A program made the translations under genes and the position numbers. Below, in pieces: positions 24,878 to 34,422 of a stretch of DNA of 41,420 nt. The notes beneath the pieces were generated by a model. It was not told where the DNA came from, did not search any database, and was given only the letters and a program-made list of their open reading frames with translations. Source of the stretch: Desulfovibrionales bacterium (GTDB lineage Bacteria; Desulfobacterota; Desulfovibrionia; Desulfovibrionales; Desulfomicrobiaceae). Numbering within the stretch: the first letter of the stretch is position 1; each line of letters begins with the position of its first letter. The stretch lies in NCBI GenBank assembly GCA_012729655.1, contig JAAYCS010000098.1:1-41420 (forward strand). Direction: 5' to 3'.

Positions 24878-25128
24878 TCCACCAGGACGGCCTGGGCGAG
24901 ATTGCGGCACAGGCACAGCCGCCCGGAGCGGACCAGGATCAGCAGGGGACCACTGGAGTTGGAGATCATCTCCACTTCGGTGCCTGGGGTGAGCCCCATG
25001 GCCGCAAGCTTGCCCACATGACAATCCTGGGTCCTGGCCAGACAGCGCACCACGGCCTTTTCCCCTTCCTTGAGGTCGCACAGGGTGCGGGCCCCGGTCT
25101 GCCCTTCTTTGTGTTTGCAGAAAAACAT
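24874..25128 (-). CDS. Second FeoA-domain protein
   Basis: This protein of about 84 residues has an SH3-like FeoA domain: LCDLKEGEKAVV, GKLAAMGLTPGTEVEMI and LLILVRSGRLCLCRNLA. It probably binds FeoB or modulates its GTPase, as FeoA proteins do. The N-terminus carries an extra CKHKEGQ stretch not seen in the first FeoA. The start at 25128 shares a base with the feoB stop (TGATG); an ATG at 25134 is an alternative. It overlaps the next gene by 4 bp, so feoB, this gene and the transferase are translationally coupled. Confidence 0.85.
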   Translation of the reverse strand: MFFCKHKEGQTGARTLCDLKEGEKAVVRCLARTQDCHVGKLAAMGLTPGTEVEMISNSSGPLLILVRSGRLCLCRNLAQAVLVE

Positions 25129-27299
25129 CACCATCCCAGACGTATGCCAAGTTGATAGATGGCCGTTGACAGGCCAAAGGCAAAACCGGTGTTGAAGAGC
25201 ACGCTGAACACGGCCCAGCCCCACGAAGCCTCCCGGGAAATGGCCACCACGGTGACGAAGCACGGCGAGTACAGGAGCACGAAGAGCATCAGGCTGACGG
25301 CGACGCTGGTGTTCCAACCCTCAGCCTGGGCAATGCGCCTGGAAAATCCGAGGTCTCCCTCGTCGTTCATGGCGTAGGCGGTGGACAGGGTGGAAACGAT
25401 GACTTCCTTGGCCGCGATGCCGCCCAGCAGGGCGATATTGGTCCGCCAGTCAAATCCGGCCCAGGAGGTCACGGGTTCGATGGCCTGTCCGATGCGGCCT
25501 GCCAGGGAATGGGTCAGTCCCTGCTCCTTGCGGCGCAGTTCCATCAGATCGATGGAGGCCTGGAGTTCTTGGCGGGTCCCGTCGTCCACTGCGACAGCCA
25601 GTTGCTGTTCCAGCTTTGCGATTTCCGTCTTGAACAGGGCAGATTGTTCCTGGGGCAGACGGGGGAAGACCATCATGGCCCAGATCAGCACGGAGATGGC
25701 CAGGATCACGGTGCCGGCCTTTTTGATGTACTGCCACCCGCGTTCCCAGGTATGCAGCACGAGACCCATGGACGTGGGCATGCGGTAAGGAGGCAGCTCC
25801 ATGACAAAGGGGGTGGAGGGCCCGCGGATGAGGGATGAGCGCAGAACCCTGGCCACCACCAGGGCTGCGGCCCAGCCGGCCAGGGTGATGCAGAACATGA
25901 CAGTGGCCCCGTGAGCGGGGAAAAAAGCCGCGGCCAGGAGAATGAAAACCGGAACCTTGGCGCCACAGGCCATGAACGGGGCGGTGAGCAGGGTGGCCAG
26001 TTTTTCTTTGGGACTGCGCAACGTCCTGGCGGCCATCACTCCAGGCACTGCGCAGCCGCCAGGGATGCCTCCGGAGATGATGAAGGGGACCACGGAGCTG
26101 CCGTGCAGGCCGAACGCGCGGAAAACCCGGTCCAGCATGTAGGCCATGCGGGCCATGTAGCCCGAATCCTCCAGAAAGGTGATGCCCAGAAACATGATCA
26201 GGATCAAGGGCACGAAGCCGAGCACCCCGCCCACTCCGGCAATGATGCCATCCACCACCATGGACCGGAACAGGCCCGCGGGCAGCAGCGTCTCGGCCAG
26301 ACCGGAGAGCCAGCCGAAAAAGGCTTCCACCCAGCCCATGGGTACCTGCCCCAGGGCGAAGGTCAGGCTGAACAGACCGTAAAGGACGGCAAGCATGATG
26401 ACCGGCCCGGCCACCTGATGAGTCAGCACGGAGTCAATCTTGTCCGAAAGATCGGCCCGGTTGTACAGGTCTGGCAGGATAGTCAGCACGCCCTGGCGGA
26501 GCAGGGATGCAATGTACCCGTAGCGGTAGTCGGCGACCAGGAATTCGGGCTGGGAGTTCAGGGTCTTGGCGCAGTGCGCGGTTACGGTCGCGTCCAGATC
26601 CCGCATGCTGCGGTGCAGGTCGTGGTCCGCCTCGAACAGCTGCCGCACGACAGCGTCGTTCTCCAGGAATTTGAGGGCCAGCCAGCGTGGGGGATATACC
26701 GCGGTCAGAAAATGTCTCTCCTCGATCAGGGAGGTCATCTCCTGCAGCACGGGATCCAGGTCTGGACCGTAGGAGATGTGCAGCGGTTCCCAGGTTTTCT
26801 GCGGATTGGCCAGGGCTGCGTCCAGGGCCTCGCGCACCCCTTTGCCCGACCTGGCCACGGTCTGCACCACGGGCAGGCGCATGAGCTCCGACAATCGGCG
26901 GGCATCGATGCGGATCCCCTTGGACTCCAGGGCATCGACCATGTTCAGGGCCAGGGTGACAGGGATCCCCAGTTCGAGGAACTGCACGGTCAGGTAGAGG
27001 TTGCGCTCCAGGCTGGTGGCATCCAGGACGTTGATCACGCCATGGGGCCGCTGGTGGATCAGGAAATCGCGGGCCACCAGCTCTTCCTGGGAGTAGGCGG
27101 TCAGGGAATACGTGCCGGGCAGGTCCACGACCCGCACCATGCCGGCAGGGGTGTCCACAAACCCCTCCTTCTTTTCCACCGTGATGCCGGGATAATTGCC
27201 GACATGCTGGCGGGAACCGGTCAGGGCGTTGAACAGGGTGGTCTTCCCGGCGTTGGGGTTGCCGGCCAGGGCGATGGTGATGGCTGTGGGTTCAGACAA
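25128..27299 (-). CDS. feoB: FeoB ferrous iron transporter
   Basis: This 723-residue inner-membrane Fe(II) transporter has an N-terminal G domain: G1 GNPNAGKT (13-20), G3 DLPG (59-62), G4 NMVD (119-122). It then has a helical GDI-like region and a membrane part with two Gate motifs, including PFIISGGIPGGCAVPGVMAA and, later, LLTAPFMACGAKVPVF. A soluble insertion with KLEQQLAVAVDDG splits the later helices, as in many FeoB proteins. Translation appears to start at a TTG that overlaps the end of feoA by 8 bp; no ATG is nearby. It is the main anaerobic iron uptake system, matching an anaerobe. Confidence 0.96.
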   Translation of the reverse strand: MSEPTAITIALAGNPNAGKTTLFNALTGSRQHVGNYPGITVEKKEGFVDTPAGMVRVVDLPGTYSLTAYSQEELVARDFLIHQRPHGVINVLDATSLERNLYLTVQFLELGIPVTLALNMVDALESKGIRIDARRLSELMRLPVVQTVARSGKGVREALDAALANPQKTWEPLHISYGPDLDPVLQEMTSLIEERHFLTAVYPPRWLALKFLENDAVVRQLFEADHDLHRSMRDLDATVTAHCAKTLNSQPEFLVADYRYGYIASLLRQGVLTILPDLYNRADLSDKIDSVLTHQVAGPVIMLAVLYGLFSLTFALGQVPMGWVEAFFGWLSGLAETLLPAGLFRSMVVDGIIAGVGGVLGFVPLILIMFLGITFLEDSGYMARMAYMLDRVFRAFGLHGSSVVPFIISGGIPGGCAVPGVMAARTLRSPKEKLATLLTAPFMACGAKVPVFILLAAAFFPAHGATVMFCITLAGWAAALVVARVLRSSLIRGPSTPFVMELPPYRMPTSMGLVLHTWERGWQYIKKAGTVILAISVLIWAMMVFPRLPQEQSALFKTEIAKLEQQLAVAVDDGTRQELQASIDLMELRRKEQGLTHSLAGRIGQAIEPVTSWAGFDWRTNIALLGGIAAKEVIVSTLSTAYAMNDEGDLGFSRRIAQAEGWNTSVAVSLMLFVLLYSPCFVTVVAISREASWGWAVFSVLFNTGFAFGLSTAIYQLGIRLGW

Positions 27300-27543
27300 G
27301 ATCGGAATCCGCGAGTTCGACAGTGATGTAGTCCGCTTCGCTGTTGCGCAGGGTCAGGGTGAACCCTTTCAGGCGCAGGGCCACGGGGTCTTTCAGGGGG
27401 GCGCGTCCGATGACGGTGATCTCCGTCCCCGGCACCAGGCCCATGTCCCGGATCCTGCGGCCAAGTTCGCCTTGGGCGGAAATGGCCCTGATGACCCCGC
27501 TCTGGTCCAGGCGCATCCTGCGCAGATTGACGATGGTGCCCAC
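27292..27543 (-). CDS. feoA: FeoA, ferrous iron transport accessory protein
   Basis: This 83-residue cytoplasmic SH3-like protein is required with FeoB for Fe(II) uptake. It contains VNLRRMRLDQSG, ELGRRIRDMGLVPGTEITVI (26-45) and the final LTLRNSEADYITVE. The GTG start has AGGAGA 6-7 nt upstream. It is the first gene of feoA-feoB-feoA2 and has its own AT-rich promoter region at 27600-27661, 139 bp downstream of the DtxR-type regulator gene. Confidence 0.93.
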   Translation of the reverse strand: MGTIVNLRRMRLDQSGVIRAISAQGELGRRIRDMGLVPGTEITVIGRAPLKDPVALRLKGFTLTLRNSEADYITVELADSDLV

Positions 27544-27633
27544 GAATGCTCTCCTTGATCGGCGGTTTCTGCTGTGAATCCCCTCGGAAGCGGAAACCGG
27601 ATTTTTTTGCTCGGATTGAGGGGGTGGCCAGAG

Positions 27634-27661
27634 AAAATATTTAATACATCTAATTTGTCAA
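27634..27661 (-). promoter_or_regulatory. Candidate feoA promoter with possible operator
   Basis: On the minus strand a consensus -35 TTGACA (27661-27656) and a -10 TATTTT (27639-27634) are 16 bp apart, in the most AT-rich stretch of the area. The spacer holds TTTAATACATCTAAT (27640-27654), whose TCTAAT half-site recurs upstream of the DtxR-type gene, so a repressor binding there would block the promoter. This is a pattern-based prediction. Confidence 0.6.
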
Positions 27662-27682
27662 GCCGCATCCCGCTGTCGTGAT

Positions 27683-28192
27683 TCACGGAGATTTGGATTG
27701 GGCCTTGTCCAGACGGTCCAGGCAGGACTGGATGCATTCCGTGCAGTTGGAGCAACCCCCGCGCTCCCTGCAGGTCCTGGTGAAGGCCTCCAGCCAGTCT
27801 TTGCCCGTGCGGGGGCAGGTCATGATGAACCGTGCGAATTTGGTCAAGGTTTCCAGGCTTTCGTCGTCGATGTCGTGTTCGAGTTTGCAGGCGGTCTCTG
27901 CGGCCACTTCGGGACGGATCTGCAGGAACGTGCGCAGGAAATCGTACAGGACCTTGTGGCGATGGACGATGCGGGTGGCCGTGCGGAAGCCCTCGGGAGT
28001 AAGGGTCACCGAACTGTACGGCTGGTAGTTGATCAGCCCCCGCTGGGAGAGTTTCTGCAGTGCGTTGGTCACGGATGCCCGCTGCACGCCCATGGCGTCG
28101 GCGATGTCCTTGGCTCTGGCCTCGGAATGCTGGGATTCGAGGGAGAAAATGACCTCAAGGTAGTCTTCGAGGTTGGAGGACATGTGTTCCAT
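27683..28192 (-). CDS. DtxR-family iron-dependent regulator with C-terminal cysteine cluster
   Basis: This protein of about 169 residues has a winged-helix DNA-binding domain (NLEDYLEVIF, ARAKDIADAMGVQRASVTN), then a dimerisation/metal domain. The CKLEHDI segment (Cys, Glu, His) resembles the Cys-Glu-His triad of the DtxR iron site rather than the manganese-type site of MntR. The C-terminus is unusual: Cys-x5-Cys-x2-Cys-x2-Cys-x3-Cys within the last 26 residues, which may bind a metal or Fe-S cluster. ATGs at 28201, 28192 and 28183 are all possible starts. Lying just upstream of feoA, it very probably represses the feo genes under iron repletion. Confidence 0.88.
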   Translation of the reverse strand: MEHMSSNLEDYLEVIFSLESQHSEARAKDIADAMGVQRASVTNALQKLSQRGLINYQPYSSVTLTPEGFRTATRIVHRHKVLYDFLRTFLQIRPEVAAETACKLEHDIDDESLETLTKFARFIMTCPRTGKDWLEAFTRTCRERGGCSNCTECIQSCLDRLDKAQSKSP

Positions 28193-28221
28193 GGTCAACA
28201 TCCTGTTGCGGTGCCGTTCGG

Positions 28222-30229: not shown

Positions 30230-31021
30230 TCACCAGAACATCCACAGCACCAGCGGGGCCAGGGCCAGACGGTACCATGCGAAAGGGCGCAGGGTCGTCC
30301 GGCCCAGGAGGGAGATGAAGCCTTTCACCGCGAGCCACGCCGACACAAAGGAGACGGCAAAGCCCACGGCCAGGACCAGGAGGTCGTCGGGGCTGAACAG
30401 GCTCCAGCTCTTGAGCATGTCGTAGCCCGTGGCCGCGAACATGATGGGTACGGCGGCGATGAATGAGTACTCCGCGGCCATGCGGCGGTCAGCGCCGAGA
30501 ATCATGCCGCCCATGATGGTGGCGGCGGAGCGGGAAAAGCCGGGCCAAAGGGACAGGCACTGGAAACAGCCGATGCCCAGGGCCAGGCCGGGACTGAGTT
30601 GGTCCAAGGTGAACACGGTCTTGGTGCGCGGGAGCTTTTCCACAGCCAGGATGGCCAGCGCGCCCACAGCCAGGGCAAAGGCCACGGTGACGGGAGAGAA
30701 GAGGTGTTCCTTGATGGCGGAGTGGGCAAAGAGGCCCAGGAGCGCGGCGGGGAGGGAGGTCAGAAAAAGGAGGAGCAGACCGCGCAGGCCGCTGAAGCGC
30801 CGCTGCGAGGGGCGCAGCAAACCCAGGAAGGTCGGCCAGTACAGGGCCACCACTGCCAGGATGGCCCCCAGCTGGATGACGATCTCGAAGGTCTCGGCCT
30901 TGGGTCCGGTGAAGTCCAGGAGATGACCGGCGATGATCAGGTGTCCGGTGGAGGATACGGGCAGGAATTCGGTCAGGCCTTCGACGATGCCCAGGATGAC
31001 GGCGTTGGGATAGGAGGTCAT
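30230..31021 (-). CDS. uppP: Undecaprenyl-diphosphatase
   Basis: This integral membrane phosphatase of about 263 residues recycles undecaprenyl pyrophosphate for peptidoglycan and other envelope polymers (BacA/UppP). Conserved active-site motifs EGLTEFLPVSSTGHL (about 14-28) and PGFSRSAATIMGG (about 160-172) are intact, with about eight hydrophobic helices. The start at 31021 aligns with the family N-terminus; no strong ribosome site is visible, and an in-frame upstream start at 31078 seems unlikely. It is the first gene of a three-gene minus-strand group. Confidence 0.94.
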   Translation of the reverse strand: MTSYPNAVILGIVEGLTEFLPVSSTGHLIIAGHLLDFTGPKAETFEIVIQLGAILAVVALYWPTFLGLLRPSQRRFSGLRGLLLLFLTSLPAALLGLFAHSAIKEHLFSPVTVAFALAVGALAILAVEKLPRTKTVFTLDQLSPGLALGIGCFQCLSLWPGFSRSAATIMGGMILGADRRMAAEYSFIAAVPIMFAATGYDMLKSWSLFSPDDLLVLAVGFAVSFVSAWLAVKGFISLLGRTTLRPFAWYRLALAPLVLWMFW

Positions 31022-31141
31022 GGTGATCGCTGCTGCATGTGAAAAGGCCGTCCTACCCGCGGGGACGGTCACGGTCAATACTGCCTTGCACAGGGTTTTA
31101 TCTTGGAATAGTTTCTTTTTTTACGCATTCCAGGAGATGAC

Positions 31142-31957
31142 ATGCGCACGCTGCGATTCTACAAGGTTTTTCCGGGCGGAAACCCGACCATCCTCGTTCT
31201 TGACCCCGTGGACCCCCTGGAGCGGTCTGCGGTGGCGCAAGCATTCATGGCCGGGGGCCATCTCCAGGCAGAGCAGGTCGGGTTTCTGGACCTTGGGGCC
31301 CATCCAGTCAGGCTGGATATGATGGGCGGGGAGTTCTGCGGCAATGCCTGCCGGTCCGCCGCGGCGGTCATGGCCACGGAGGGCGCGGGGCTTTTCCGTG
31401 AAGGCGCAGGGTGGGCCGGCGAGTTGAGCGCCTCCGGGGCCCGCCGCCCACTGAGGGTCAGGGCCGTGCCCGCAGGGGAAACCTGGGAATGCTGGGCCGA
31501 GATGCCCCTGCTCGACGCGGATGACCCTGTCTCCGACCTGGGCCCGGGCCTGGGGCTCATCCGCCTGCCGGGCATCGTCCATCTCTGCCTGGACGAGACC
31601 AGGCATCCCTTTCCTGCGGACGTGGTCAGGGAGACGGCGCAGCTCCGGCGCAGATTCGGCCTGGACGGAGAGGCCGTGGGCTGCATCTGGTACGCCCCCC
31701 ATGCGGCGGGCTGCGCCATCAAGCCCGTGGTGTGGGTGCGCTCCACCGCCTCCACATGCTTCGAGACGGGATGCGGCTCCGGCAGCCTGGCCGTGGCGCT
31801 GTGGCTGGGGCGTGGGCAAAATTTGCCCATGCCCGCCCACGTGGTGCAGCCCAGCGGAAGGGAGATAGGTGTGCAGATCGATCGGCGCGCCCAGGGGGTC
31901 CAGGCCTGGATTTTCGGACCCGTGGCCCTGGTGGCCCGGGGCGAGGCCTGGGTCTGA
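31142..31957 (+). CDS. DapF-fold amino-acid racemase, CntK-like
   Basis: This 271-residue PLP-independent racemase/epimerase has the diaminopimelate-epimerase fold. Two catalytic cysteines are visible: Cys66 in GGEFCGNAC and Cys211 in ETGCGSGS. The pattern FPGGNPTILV (10-19), AEQVGFLD (43-50), the Cys66 motif and VVQPSGREI (234-242) resembles CntK, the histidine racemase of staphylopine synthesis, more than DapF, which starts with a GNDF-type motif. No opine synthase or nicotianamine-synthase-like gene is adjacent, so the amino acid acted on is unknown. AGGAGATGAC precedes the ATG. Its stop abuts the stop of flgE on the other strand. Confidence 0.8.
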   Translation: MRTLRFYKVFPGGNPTILVLDPVDPLERSAVAQAFMAGGHLQAEQVGFLDLGAHPVRLDMMGGEFCGNACRSAAAVMATEGAGLFREGAGWAGELSASGARRPLRVRAVPAGETWECWAEMPLLDADDPVSDLGPGLGLIRLPGIVHLCLDETRHPFPADVVRETAQLRRRFGLDGEAVGCIWYAPHAAGCAIKPVVWVRSTASTCFETGCGSGSLAVALWLGRGQNLPMPAHVVQPSGREIGVQIDRRAQGVQAWIFGPVALVARGEAWV

Positions 31958-33487
31958 CTACCTCTTCATGCCCAGGGCCGTCTGCACGACCTGATCGGCC
32001 GTGGTGATGACCTTGCTGTTGGCGTCAAAGGCCTTCTGGGTGGAGATCATGTTCACGAATTCCGTGGTCAGATCGACATTGGAATTCTCCAGGGTGCTGC
32101 CCGCAATGGTCCCCAGCCGCCCTGTGCCCGCCAGGCCAAGGATGGCTGCCCCGGAATCCCGGGTGGCTGAAAAAAGGTTTCCGCCCTCGCGCAGCAATCC
32201 CTGGGCATTGATGAAGTCCGCCAGGGGGATGGTGAACAGACCCAGGTCCTGGCCATTGGAGAACGTGCCGACGATGGTCCCGTCACTGGCCACGGAGACG
32301 GATTCGAGGTATCCTGCGGTGTATCCGTTCTGGGACTGGAAAATCGTGCTCGCCGTCGCGTTGTAGCTGGTGGTGGCCAGGGCATCAACGGTGGGGGATG
32401 CCAGCCCGGGAAGACCGCCCAGAGTCGTGCCCAGATTGTCCATGGAAGTGAACTCCTCCGGCAGAATCCAGTCCGTGTTCCCTGCCCCGGAACTCCCGTT
32501 CCGCAGCCCAAAATCCACGGTGGCCGTAAACGCCCCTGCATTGGAGGTGGCCGCGCGCATGACGGGCAGCCCATCCCCGGAAAAACTGGCCGGAACCCAG
32601 GAACTTTTATCGTCGGTCGTGCCTTGGAAGGCACTCATGTCGATGAGTGCGCCGACGGCGTCAAAGGTCAGAGTGCCGGCCATGAGCACGCCTTTTTTGG
32701 TGCTCAGGGCGGACCCGTCCTCTGCGGGTGGGGTGGTCAGCAGGAACTCCCAGACCCTCCTGCCGTCGGCGCCGGTCGATTCCACCCCCGCGGGATCGAA
32801 ATATGCGGTCAGACTGTGTGCCTGTCCCGCTGAGTCGTAAACACGCAGGGACGACGTGTAGGCATAGCTGTCCCGTGCAAGGGGCGGGTCCTGCGCGGCG
32901 TCCCATTCGTCGAAAAGGGCTGTCAGGGGGCTCGTCGAGCCGGAATGTGTCTCCGGCGCGGAGGAGTCGAGGTTGAACATCATGCGGATTGCCGATGTGG
33001 CCCTGGGGTCGGACATGAACGTGTTCCCGTCCGGGGCGTCCAGGCGGATGTCCTCCAGGGTGGAACCGGCGGCTCCCGAGTCCGTGAGGCGGTACCCCTG
33101 GACGATATTGCCGGCAGGATCGCGGTAATAGCCCTGCGCGTCGAAGGTGAAGTTCCCGGCCCTGGTGTAGAACAGCGCGTCCGAGTTTTGCGGGGAGACA
33201 ATGAAGAATCCGTTGCCGCCGACGGCGATGTCGGTGGCGAGGGCGGTCTTTTCCATGGCCCCGGAGGCCATGTCGGTGAAGACCGAACTGACACCCACGC
33301 CCTGCCCGACCTGATGGCCCACGTCGGCCCCTGCCAGCTGCTCGCTGAGAAGGCTGTTGAAGAGTAGCCGCGAGGACTTGAACCCCACGGTATTCATATT
33401 GGCGATATTGTCGGAGATGACCGACATGTTTTCCTGCTGGGCGGTGACCCCGGTGGTGCCGATGAAGATGGACGAGGAAATGCTCAT
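31958..33487 (-). CDS. flgE: Flagellar hook protein FlgE-type
   Basis: This 509-residue axial flagellar protein is exported to form the hook. The N-terminal Flg rod/hook motif SVISDNIANMNTVGFKSSR (about 22-40), the inner GNGFFIV and FYTRAGNFTFDAQGYY regions, the variable surface domain (about 150-400) and the C-terminal STQKAFDANSKVITTADQVVQTAL are all present. GGAGG lies 5 nt upstream of the ATG. No other flagellar genes are in the window, so this is either a lone hook gene or a paralogue. A sigma-54-like promoter lies about 70 bp upstream. Confidence 0.92.
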   Translation of the reverse strand: MSISSSIFIGTTGVTAQQENMSVISDNIANMNTVGFKSSRLLFNSLLSEQLAGADVGHQVGQGVGVSSVFTDMASGAMEKTALATDIAVGGNGFFIVSPQNSDALFYTRAGNFTFDAQGYYRDPAGNIVQGYRLTDSGAAGSTLEDIRLDAPDGNTFMSDPRATSAIRMMFNLDSSAPETHSGSTSPLTALFDEWDAAQDPPLARDSYAYTSSLRVYDSAGQAHSLTAYFDPAGVESTGADGRRVWEFLLTTPPAEDGSALSTKKGVLMAGTLTFDAVGALIDMSAFQGTTDDKSSWVPASFSGDGLPVMRAATSNAGAFTATVDFGLRNGSSGAGNTDWILPEEFTSMDNLGTTLGGLPGLASPTVDALATTSYNATASTIFQSQNGYTAGYLESVSVASDGTIVGTFSNGQDLGLFTIPLADFINAQGLLREGGNLFSATRDSGAAILGLAGTGRLGTIAGSTLENSNVDLTTEFVNMISTQKAFDANSKVITTADQVVQTALGMKR

Positions 33488-33556
33488 GAATGCCTCCGCT
33501 GCGGGAAAAGGGTTCCATGACCTGGGCGGAAGGTTTTTCCGACCCCGGAGGTTATC

Positions 33557-33572
33557 TGCAGGAAAAGGGCCA
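33557..33572 (-). promoter_or_regulatory. Sigma-54-type promoter for flgE
   Basis: Read on the minus strand, TGGCCCTTTTCCTGCA keeps the invariant GG and GC dinucleotides exactly 10 bp apart and matches the -24/-12 consensus TGGCAC-N5-TTGCA at all but two positions. It is about 70 bp before the flgE start, which fits a class of flagellar genes often driven by sigma-54. Confidence 0.55.
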
Positions 33573-33735
33573 GCAGGAAGCGTCCTGCCGGCGCAGATCC
33601 CCGCGCGCGCTCCCTGGGGCGGTGCAACCATGACGGGGATGGACAATGCTGGGCGAAAAGAGCGGGGCTGGGAGGCAGATCATGATTTGTCGGGGTGACG
33701 GCAGATCCCAACGGAGGGGCCAGCGGGGTGCGCGT

Positions 33736-34422
33736 TTACCAGAGATGCCAACTCCCGGTCGCACGGACATAGCAGGCCAGGGCGATGTTGGTCGTCGCAT
33801 GGGCCGCGATGCAGGAAAGGAGATCCTTGCGGTACACCCACAGCAAGGACATGAGCAGCCCGTAGGCGATGGAAGCCGGCCATTCCGGGACATTGTGGCC
33901 GGCGGTGAAGACCAGAGTGGAGATGGCGACGGCTGCCCAGGACCACTCCCCAGGCCGCACCGCGTTCATGGACCGCTCGTCCAGGGCGGTCTGCAGCGCT
34001 GACCCGTCCCCTTTCTGGCGCTCCTGGTTCCACTGCAGGGCGACCCGGAAGACGTAGCCCCGCATGAGAAGTTCTTCAAAAACGGGAACAAGCAGTCCCG
34101 CGGCGGCGAGGCGCAGCCAGAAGGAAAGGCTGGACCAGGGGGATGCATCCTGTGCGGAGACGAATGGGCTGAGCAGGGCGATCCACACCCACGCGCCGGC
34201 CAGCCCCGCGCCGATGCCCCAGAGGGTGGAGACAAGAGGCGACCCCGGGCCCGTCAGGGGGCAGTACCACCGTCTGGCCCAGAGCAGGAGGCCGCTGACG
34301 ACGACCAGCCGCAGGGCGTAGTTGACTTCGCTGGGGAGGATGCCCGCCGGCAGGGAGGCCAGGGCAACGTACGCCACGTACGGGAGGATGTAGGGAAGGA
34401 CGAGCTGTCGGTTGGTCAGCAT
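33736..34422 (-). CDS. CPBP-family intramembrane metalloprotease
   Basis: This 228-residue membrane protein is of the CAAX protease/bacteriocin-processing (CPBP, Abi) family. It has several hydrophobic helices and the three active-site motifs: EELLMRGYVFR with Glu116-Glu117 and Arg121, FTAGHN with its histidine (about 175), and the C-terminal HATTN. Family members cleave within membranes; substrates range from prenylated proteins to bacteriocin precursors, and none can be assigned here. It lies 23 bp after a small membrane-protein gene, so the two may form an operon. Confidence 0.88.
   Translation of the reverse strand: MLTNRQLVLPYILPYVAYVALASLPAGILPSEVNYALRLVVVSGLLLWARRWYCPLTGPGSPLVSTLWGIGAGLAGAWVWIALLSPFVSAQDASPWSSLSFWLRLAAAGLLVPVFEELLMRGYVFRVALQWNQERQKGDGSALQTALDERSMNAVRPGEWSWAAVAISTLVFTAGHNVPEWPASIAYGLLMSLLWVYRKDLLSCIAAHATTNIALACYVRATGSWHLW

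What the first reader, a model, noticed from the sequence alone, without database searches (positions are those of the whole stretch)
31142..31957. Orphan CntK-like, DapF-fold racemase
Both catalytic cysteines are present, but the N-terminal and central motifs resemble the histidine racemase CntK of staphylopine synthesis rather than DapF. No metallophore genes are adjacent, so it may make a D-amino acid for an unknown product or supply a distant opine cluster.
Basis: partly seen in the sequence, partly recalled or inferred. Interest (0 to 1): 0.6.

Follow-up and report, generated by a model that had tools for sequence, protein, structure and literature searches.

The report
Stand-alone histidine racemase-like enzyme
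A Desulfomicrobium-like sulfate reducer and nearly all of its genus carry a solitary gene for an enzyme that very probably interconverts L- and D-histidine, a known but rare activity, with none of the metallophore genes that usually explain it, so what D-histidine is for here remains open.

Summary
The ORF at 31142-31957 (+) encodes a 271-aa DapF-fold protein with both catalytic cysteines (C66, C211). It is not DapF: the genome has a separate true dapF, and the two fall on opposite sides of a 100%-supported branch. Sequence, profile and structure searches all rank the Fusobacterium nucleatum histidine racemase HisR first and staphylococcal CntK second, with DapF far behind. Residues proposed to hold histidine in HisR and CntK (N14, E44, E64, N68, E208, S213 here) are present and conserved in 86-87 of 87 homologues. 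No CntM or CntL homologue was found in the genome or in 15 genus-mates, and no HutH. In the genus the gene stands alone between divergent uppP and convergent flgE, and 14 of 15 genus-mates keep it under purifying selection. It is therefore a new, divergent member of the known cofactor-independent histidine racemase family. The nearest characterised member is the equally orphan HisR (2024), and the gene is not part of a distant opine pathway. Elsewhere in the family, neighbours include a hut operon, amino-acid ABC transporters and a D-aminoacylase-like gene, which favours D-histidine salvage over metallophore synthesis. That role is inferred; substrate and direction need an assay.

The parts
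31142..31957 (+). hisR-like gene, 271 aa, DapF-fold cofactor-independent racemase, probably acting on histidine
31132..31136 (+). AGGAG, likely Shine-Dalgarno sequence, 5 bases before the ATG
   Evidence: read from the sequence
31271..31276 (+). codons for E44-Q45 of AEQVGF; E44 matches CntK Glu46 / HisR Glu49 (proposed imidazole contact); DapF has D-G here
31331..31339 (+). codons for E64-F65-C66: first catalytic cysteine and the Glu proposed to bind imidazole (HisR Glu65/Cys67)
31763..31774 (+). codons for E208...C211: substrate-binding Glu (HisR Glu206, CntK Glu208) and second catalytic cysteine (HisR Cys209)
30230..31078 (-). uppP/bacA (undecaprenyl-diphosphatase), divergent neighbour kept across the genus; synteny, not shown to be functional linkage
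31958..33646 (-). flgE (flagellar hook protein), convergent neighbour whose stop codon abuts that of the hisR-like gene; kept in the genus and in a sister genus

Best explanation
The gene encodes a cofactor-independent amino-acid racemase of the HisR/CntK family whose substrate is most probably histidine. Two cysteines at the N-termini of the two central helices (C66, C211) act as an acid/base pair: one takes the alpha proton from one face and the other returns a proton to the opposite face, interconverting L- and D-histidine. Shown by sequence and model: fold, both cysteines, substrate-contact residues, separation from DapF, no detectable cntL/cntM/hutH, and a solitary transcription unit. Inferred: catalysis, histidine specificity and direction. 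The leading hypothesis for the role is salvage or detoxification of D-histidine (D to L). The alternative is supply of D-histidine to an unknown product.
For: HisR is the best profile hit and the best PDB hit by sequence (3e-18); with the family profile HisR scores 8.7e-62, CntK 4.8e-50, O-ureidoserine racemase and DapF about 1e-5. Structure: HisR Z 29.2, CntK 28.4, O-ureidoserine racemase 25.4, DapF 25.3; Foldseek 7.6e-22 vs 2e-13 for the best DapF. Contact residues proposed in PMC11602996 are conserved in 86-87 of 87 homologues. Separate dapF. Tree: DapF apart at 100%. No PF10100, PF03059 or HutH in own genome or genus-mates. Salvage hints from relatives: hutU-(hutI)-hutG followed by the racemase gene in two Cetobacterium plasmids; amino-acid ABC transporter next to it in five Clostridia loci; sodium/solute symporter plus a PRK09061-type amidohydrolase overlapping it by 4 bp in Treponema L034.
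Against: Identity to HisR is 28% and to CntK 25%; scores (89.8 and 64 bits) lie far below NCBIfam's equivalog cut-offs (400 and 300). The tree places it in a Desulfovibrionales clade outside the clade holding both characterised enzymes. E64 is also present in Desulfovibrionales DapF, so it does not discriminate alone. Salvage evidence comes from other branches: the genome lacks HutH and carries hisD, so it probably makes its own histidine, and no transporter sits beside the gene. DapF-fold Z-scores differ only modestly between subfamilies.
Confidence: 0.78

Rival explanations
1. It is a racemase of the same fold but for another amino acid (for example a basic, polar or sulfur amino acid), with histidine a poor substrate.
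For: Sequence identity to both characterised histidine racemases is under 30%; the HisR authors warn that other network clusters may differ in function (PMC11602996); the amino-acid ABC substrate-binding protein near a Lachnospiraceae relative scores best as a Lys/Arg/Orn or cystine binder, not HisJ.
Against: All proposed histidine contacts are kept and the family profile puts HisR and CntK far above any other solved racemase; Cetobacterium relatives sit in a histidine-utilisation operon.
Confidence: 0.15
2. It supplies D-histidine to an opine metallophore encoded elsewhere in the genome.
For: Similarity to CntK; the related Priestia gene lies in a cntKLM cluster; feoB and a DtxR-type regulator lie about 3-6 kb upstream in the window.
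Against: No PF10100 over cut-off in own genome or 60 relatives; no PF03059 in own genome or genus-mates; a CntL query finds only a chance-level match with an internal stop. FeoB carries free ferrous iron, not metallophores (established knowledge).
Confidence: 0.03
3. It is a second diaminopimelate epimerase (DapF paralogue).
For: Same fold; annotated 'diaminopimelate epimerase' in several relatives.
Against: DapF model E 0.01 on the C-terminal part only; separate dapF at C147 with 244.5 bits; DapF-invariant N (column of R141) and ERG (columns 199-201) are absent while V199 and P195 are invariant in the family; DapF apart at 100%.
Confidence: 0.02

Closest known systems
HisR, cofactor-independent histidine racemase of Fusobacterium nucleatum (FN1732; PDB 9CR1, 9CR6; PMC11602996; NCBIfam NF052224)
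   Same: DapF fold, both cysteines, all proposed histidine-contact residues, EQVGF and MMGGEFC motifs, orphan gene without cntL/cntM, role unknown
   Different: 28% identity (to the F. vincentii orthologue); far below the equivalog cut-off; different neighbours; host here has a true dapF whereas F. nucleatum lacks the DAP pathway
CntK, histidine racemase of staphylopine synthesis (PDB 6JIS, 6JIW, 6L4L; NCBIfam NF033599)
   Same: Fold, cysteines, EQVGF and EFCGNA motifs, Glu46 and Glu208 equivalents
   Different: 25% identity (to the S. epidermidis protein); GG instead of GN before EFC; no cntL or cntM homologue beside it or found in the genome
DapF, diaminopimelate epimerase (TIGR00652)
   Same: Fold and two-cysteine mechanism
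   Different: Substrate-recognition motifs, phylogenetic position; the genome has its own DapF
O-ureidoserine racemase (PDB 7VDY)
   Same: Fold
   Different: 18% identity in the structural alignment, weak profile match (1.1e-05)
PhzF
   Same: Fold only
   Different: 12% identity over the structural alignment; no PhzF Pfam hit

Membership tests
Cofactor-independent histidine racemases (HisR/CntK) | DapF-like fold, closest to HisR/CntK structures | tested here: met
   Model pLDDT 96; top hits 9cr6/9cr1 (Z 29), then CntK (Z 26-28)
Cofactor-independent histidine racemases (HisR/CntK) | Two catalytic cysteines at the N-termini of the central helices | tested here: met
   C66 before helix 67-80 and C211 before helix 212-222; invariant in 87 of 87 homologues
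Cofactor-independent histidine racemases (HisR/CntK) | Proposed histidine contacts: HisR Asn18, Glu49, Glu65, Asn69, Glu206, Ser211 | tested here: met
   N14, E44, E64, N68, E208, S213 in the alignment against residues named in PMC11602996
NCBIfam equivalogs NF052224 (HisR) and NF033599 (CntK) | Score over the curated equivalog cut-off | tested here: not met
   89.8 of 400 and 64.2 of 300 bits; so not filed as HisR-Fuso or CntK orthologue, only as member of the wider family
Cofactor-independent histidine racemases (HisR/CntK) | Racemises histidine without PLP | not testable with these tools
   Needs enzyme assay
CntK of an opine metallophore cluster | cntL and cntM (NAS-like synthase, opine dehydrogenase) next to it or in the genome | tested here: not met
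   genome 88.6% complete, genus-mates up to 100%
DapF | TIGR00652 over cut-off and grouping with DapF | tested here: not met
   15.2 of 114.65 bits; tree; separate dapF

The most novel reading that the evidence does not exclude
Desulfomicrobium and allied Desulfovibrionales have a conserved, metallophore-free D-histidine metabolism (production of D-histidine for a wall, exported or peptide product, or a dedicated salvage route), run by a solitary racemase of a subfamily that has not been characterised.
Probability: 0.3. Interest if true: 0.5.

Novelty: new member of a known kind. Interest (0 to 1): 0.3.

Why it matters
As far as I know, D-histidine has one established bacterial use, staphylopine-type metallophores. 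HisR showed in 2024 that some bacteria have the racemase without that pathway, and its purpose is unknown (PMC11602996). A genus-core, single-gene version in sulfate reducers, together with the hut and amino-acid-uptake contexts of other relatives, gives concrete ways to test whether these enzymes salvage D-histidine.

Tried and rejected
DapF paralogue: rejected. Distant opine cluster: no CntM or CntL homologue. Histidine degradation in this organism: HutH not found in own genome or genus-mates. Companion D-aminoacylase (PRK09061 type) in own genome: none at the limit used. Apparent fusions of the racemase to long N-terminal regions (L042 1283 aa, L130 903 aa, L122 611 aa): for L042 and L130 no Pfam domain was found, and all three look like upstream open-frame read-through rather than fusions. 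A neighbour in Megasphaera and L011 that I suspected to be D-aminoacyl-tRNA deacylase turned out to be FUR. UppP and FlgE neighbours: genus or family synteny, absent from other lineages, so no functional claim. Promoter and terminator scans gave nothing. The literature search found no work on D-histidine metabolism in Desulfovibrio. PhzF was not placed in the tree; it was only compared by fold and Pfam.

Full report
What is there. The ORF 31142-31957 (+) encodes 271 aa with an ATG start and AGGAG five bases upstream. It has no Pfam hit, but NCBIfam finds the Fusobacterium histidine racemase model at 2.2e-25 over the full length and CntK at 1.3e-17. DapF reaches only 0.01 over the last 79 residues. 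Against PDB sequences the best hits are F. nucleatum HisR (9cr6/9cr1, 3e-18, full length), then S. aureus CntK entries. With a 42-sequence family profile HisR scores 8.7e-62, CntK 4.8e-50 and all other racemases or epimerases 1e-5 or worse.

Structure. AlphaFold2 on the family alignment gives mean pLDDT 96.1 and pTM 0.93. Foldseek ranks HisR and CntK chains in the first nine places (7.6e-22 to 5.4e-17), then DapF at 2e-13. VIA-align gives HisR Z 29.2 (2.8 A over 251 residues), CntK 28.4, O-ureidoserine racemase 25.4, DapF 25.3 and PhzF 24.7. The fold is shared by the whole superfamily; the order, not the presence, of hits is informative. Cys66 and Cys211 lie directly before helices 67-80 and 212-222, as in HisR.

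Active site. Lamer et al. 2024 (PMC11602996) propose for HisR: Asn18 and Glu206 for the amino group, Gly68/Asn69/Ala210/Ser211 for the carboxylate, Glu65 and Glu206 for the imidazole; Luo et al., as cited there, proposed Glu46 of CntK (HisR Glu49). In a 108-sequence alignment the window protein has N14, E44, E64, N68, E208, S213 and both cysteines, each conserved in 86 or 87 of 87 non-DapF, non-CntK homologues and in both CntK sequences. Q45, M60, G62 and P195 are invariant in the family and in CntK and replaced in DapF; G63 is N in CntK and A in DapF, and V199 is I in CntK and E in DapF. The DapF-invariant N (column of R141) and ERG (columns 199-201) are absent. E64 is shared with Desulfovibrionales DapF and is not diagnostic alone.

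Phylogeny. In a maximum-likelihood tree of 108 proteins DapF is one side of a 100% branch. The window protein sits with genus-mates (98) in a 40-member, mainly Desulfovibrionales clade (92). Its sister clade (90) holds CntK, fusobacterial HisR and Bacillota homologues. It is thus neither DapF nor specifically CntK. Supports are SH-aLRT from a quick search. Two very long-branch rows from candidate phyla and a group of short order-level homologues are placed insecurely; the window's place among its genus-mates does not depend on them.

Genome. The window is contig C79 of a 2.84-Mb, 226-contig assembly (88.6% complete), a Desulfomicrobium relative by its closest loci. It has one true dapF (C147:8554-9339, 244.5 bits). 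Searches for CntM (PF10100), CntL (PF03059 and a Priestia CntL) and HutH (PF00221, TIGR01225) found nothing credible in it; PF10100, PF03059 and TIGR01225 also found nothing in 15 genus-mates, many of them 99-100% complete. hisD is present, so the cell probably makes L-histidine itself. 14 of 15 genus-mates have an orthologue; dN/dS is about 0.2-0.4.

Neighbourhood. In the genus the gene is alone: uppP runs divergently upstream (in L122 the gene caller shows the next gene beyond it) and flgE convergently downstream, in every member with enough flank. The flgE link extends to a sister genus; neither extends further. Elsewhere the neighbours vary: hutU-(hutI)-hutG then the racemase in two Cetobacterium plasmids; SBP_bac_3-type amino-acid ABC transporters in L037, L051, L064, L067, L079 (in L067 the ATPase gene was not seen next to them); sodium/solute symporter and a PRK09061-type amidohydrolase (a family I recall as D-glutamate/D-aminoacyl deacylases) overlapping by 4 bp in L034; hisS-aspS upstream in Megasphaera L039, L048, L074; LysE exporter in L027 and SNF symporter in L017; polyA polymerase, SelB, MetK and other housekeeping genes in others. 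cntLM was seen only with Priestia and Staphylococcus. These contexts were picked by inspection and not tested statistically.

Mechanism. Two-base, cofactor-free racemisation is inferred from the fold and cysteines (established for DapF, CntK, HisR). Histidine as substrate is inferred from conserved contacts and nearest characterised relatives (about 0.78). For the physiological role I rank D-histidine salvage or detoxification (roughly 0.45) somewhat above supply of D-histidine to an unknown product (roughly 0.35). This rests on other lineages' gene neighbours and is weak for this organism, which has no HutH.

Verdict. A correct and well-phrased observation. The enzyme belongs to a known family; 'orphan' is itself known since HisR. 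What is added is the genus-wide conservation without any opine genes, a Desulfovibrionales-centred subfamily, and salvage-like contexts elsewhere.

Noticed in passing
L084:3729-8783; L180:3951-7783 (Cetobacterium somerae plasmids): A HisR homologue annotated 'diaminopimelate epimerase' follows hutU/hutI/hutG (L084) or hutU/hutG (L180) with 23-47 bp gaps, suggesting a D-histidine utilisation operon on a plasmid.
   Followed up: partly
L034:7205-10813 (Treponema MAG): Sodium/solute symporter, PRK09061-type amidohydrolase and HisR homologue overlap in one operon, a candidate N-acyl-D-amino-acid salvage unit.
   Followed up: partly
window 25128-28201: FeoB (25128-27299), a small 83-aa ORF (27292-27543) in the place of FeoA, and a DtxR/MntR-type metal regulator (27683-28201): ordinary ferrous-iron uptake cluster 3-6 kb upstream of the racemase.
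   Followed up: no
window 33736-34422 (-): CAAX-protease-like (Rce1) protein close to TIGR03008, a CAAX prenyl protease-related family, just below its cut-off.
   Followed up: no
L058:7467-8921 and L077 upstream gene (candidate-phylum MAGs): Two candidate-phylum genomes share a Pfam-less gene directly upstream of their HisR-like gene; in L058 a D-Ala-D-Ala dipeptidase-like gene follows.
   Followed up: no
L173 (G028:C55) and L174 (G022:C15): Nicotianamine-synthase-family (PF03059) genes in two other Desulfovibrionales genera in which no HisR homologue was found.
   Followed up: no
L112-L116, L135, L136, L139-L142 (order-level relatives): Shortened (226-248 aa; one 293-aa ORF) HisR-like proteins; in several, the gene lies 8-14 bp behind a polyA-polymerase/CCA-type gene.
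   Followed up: no
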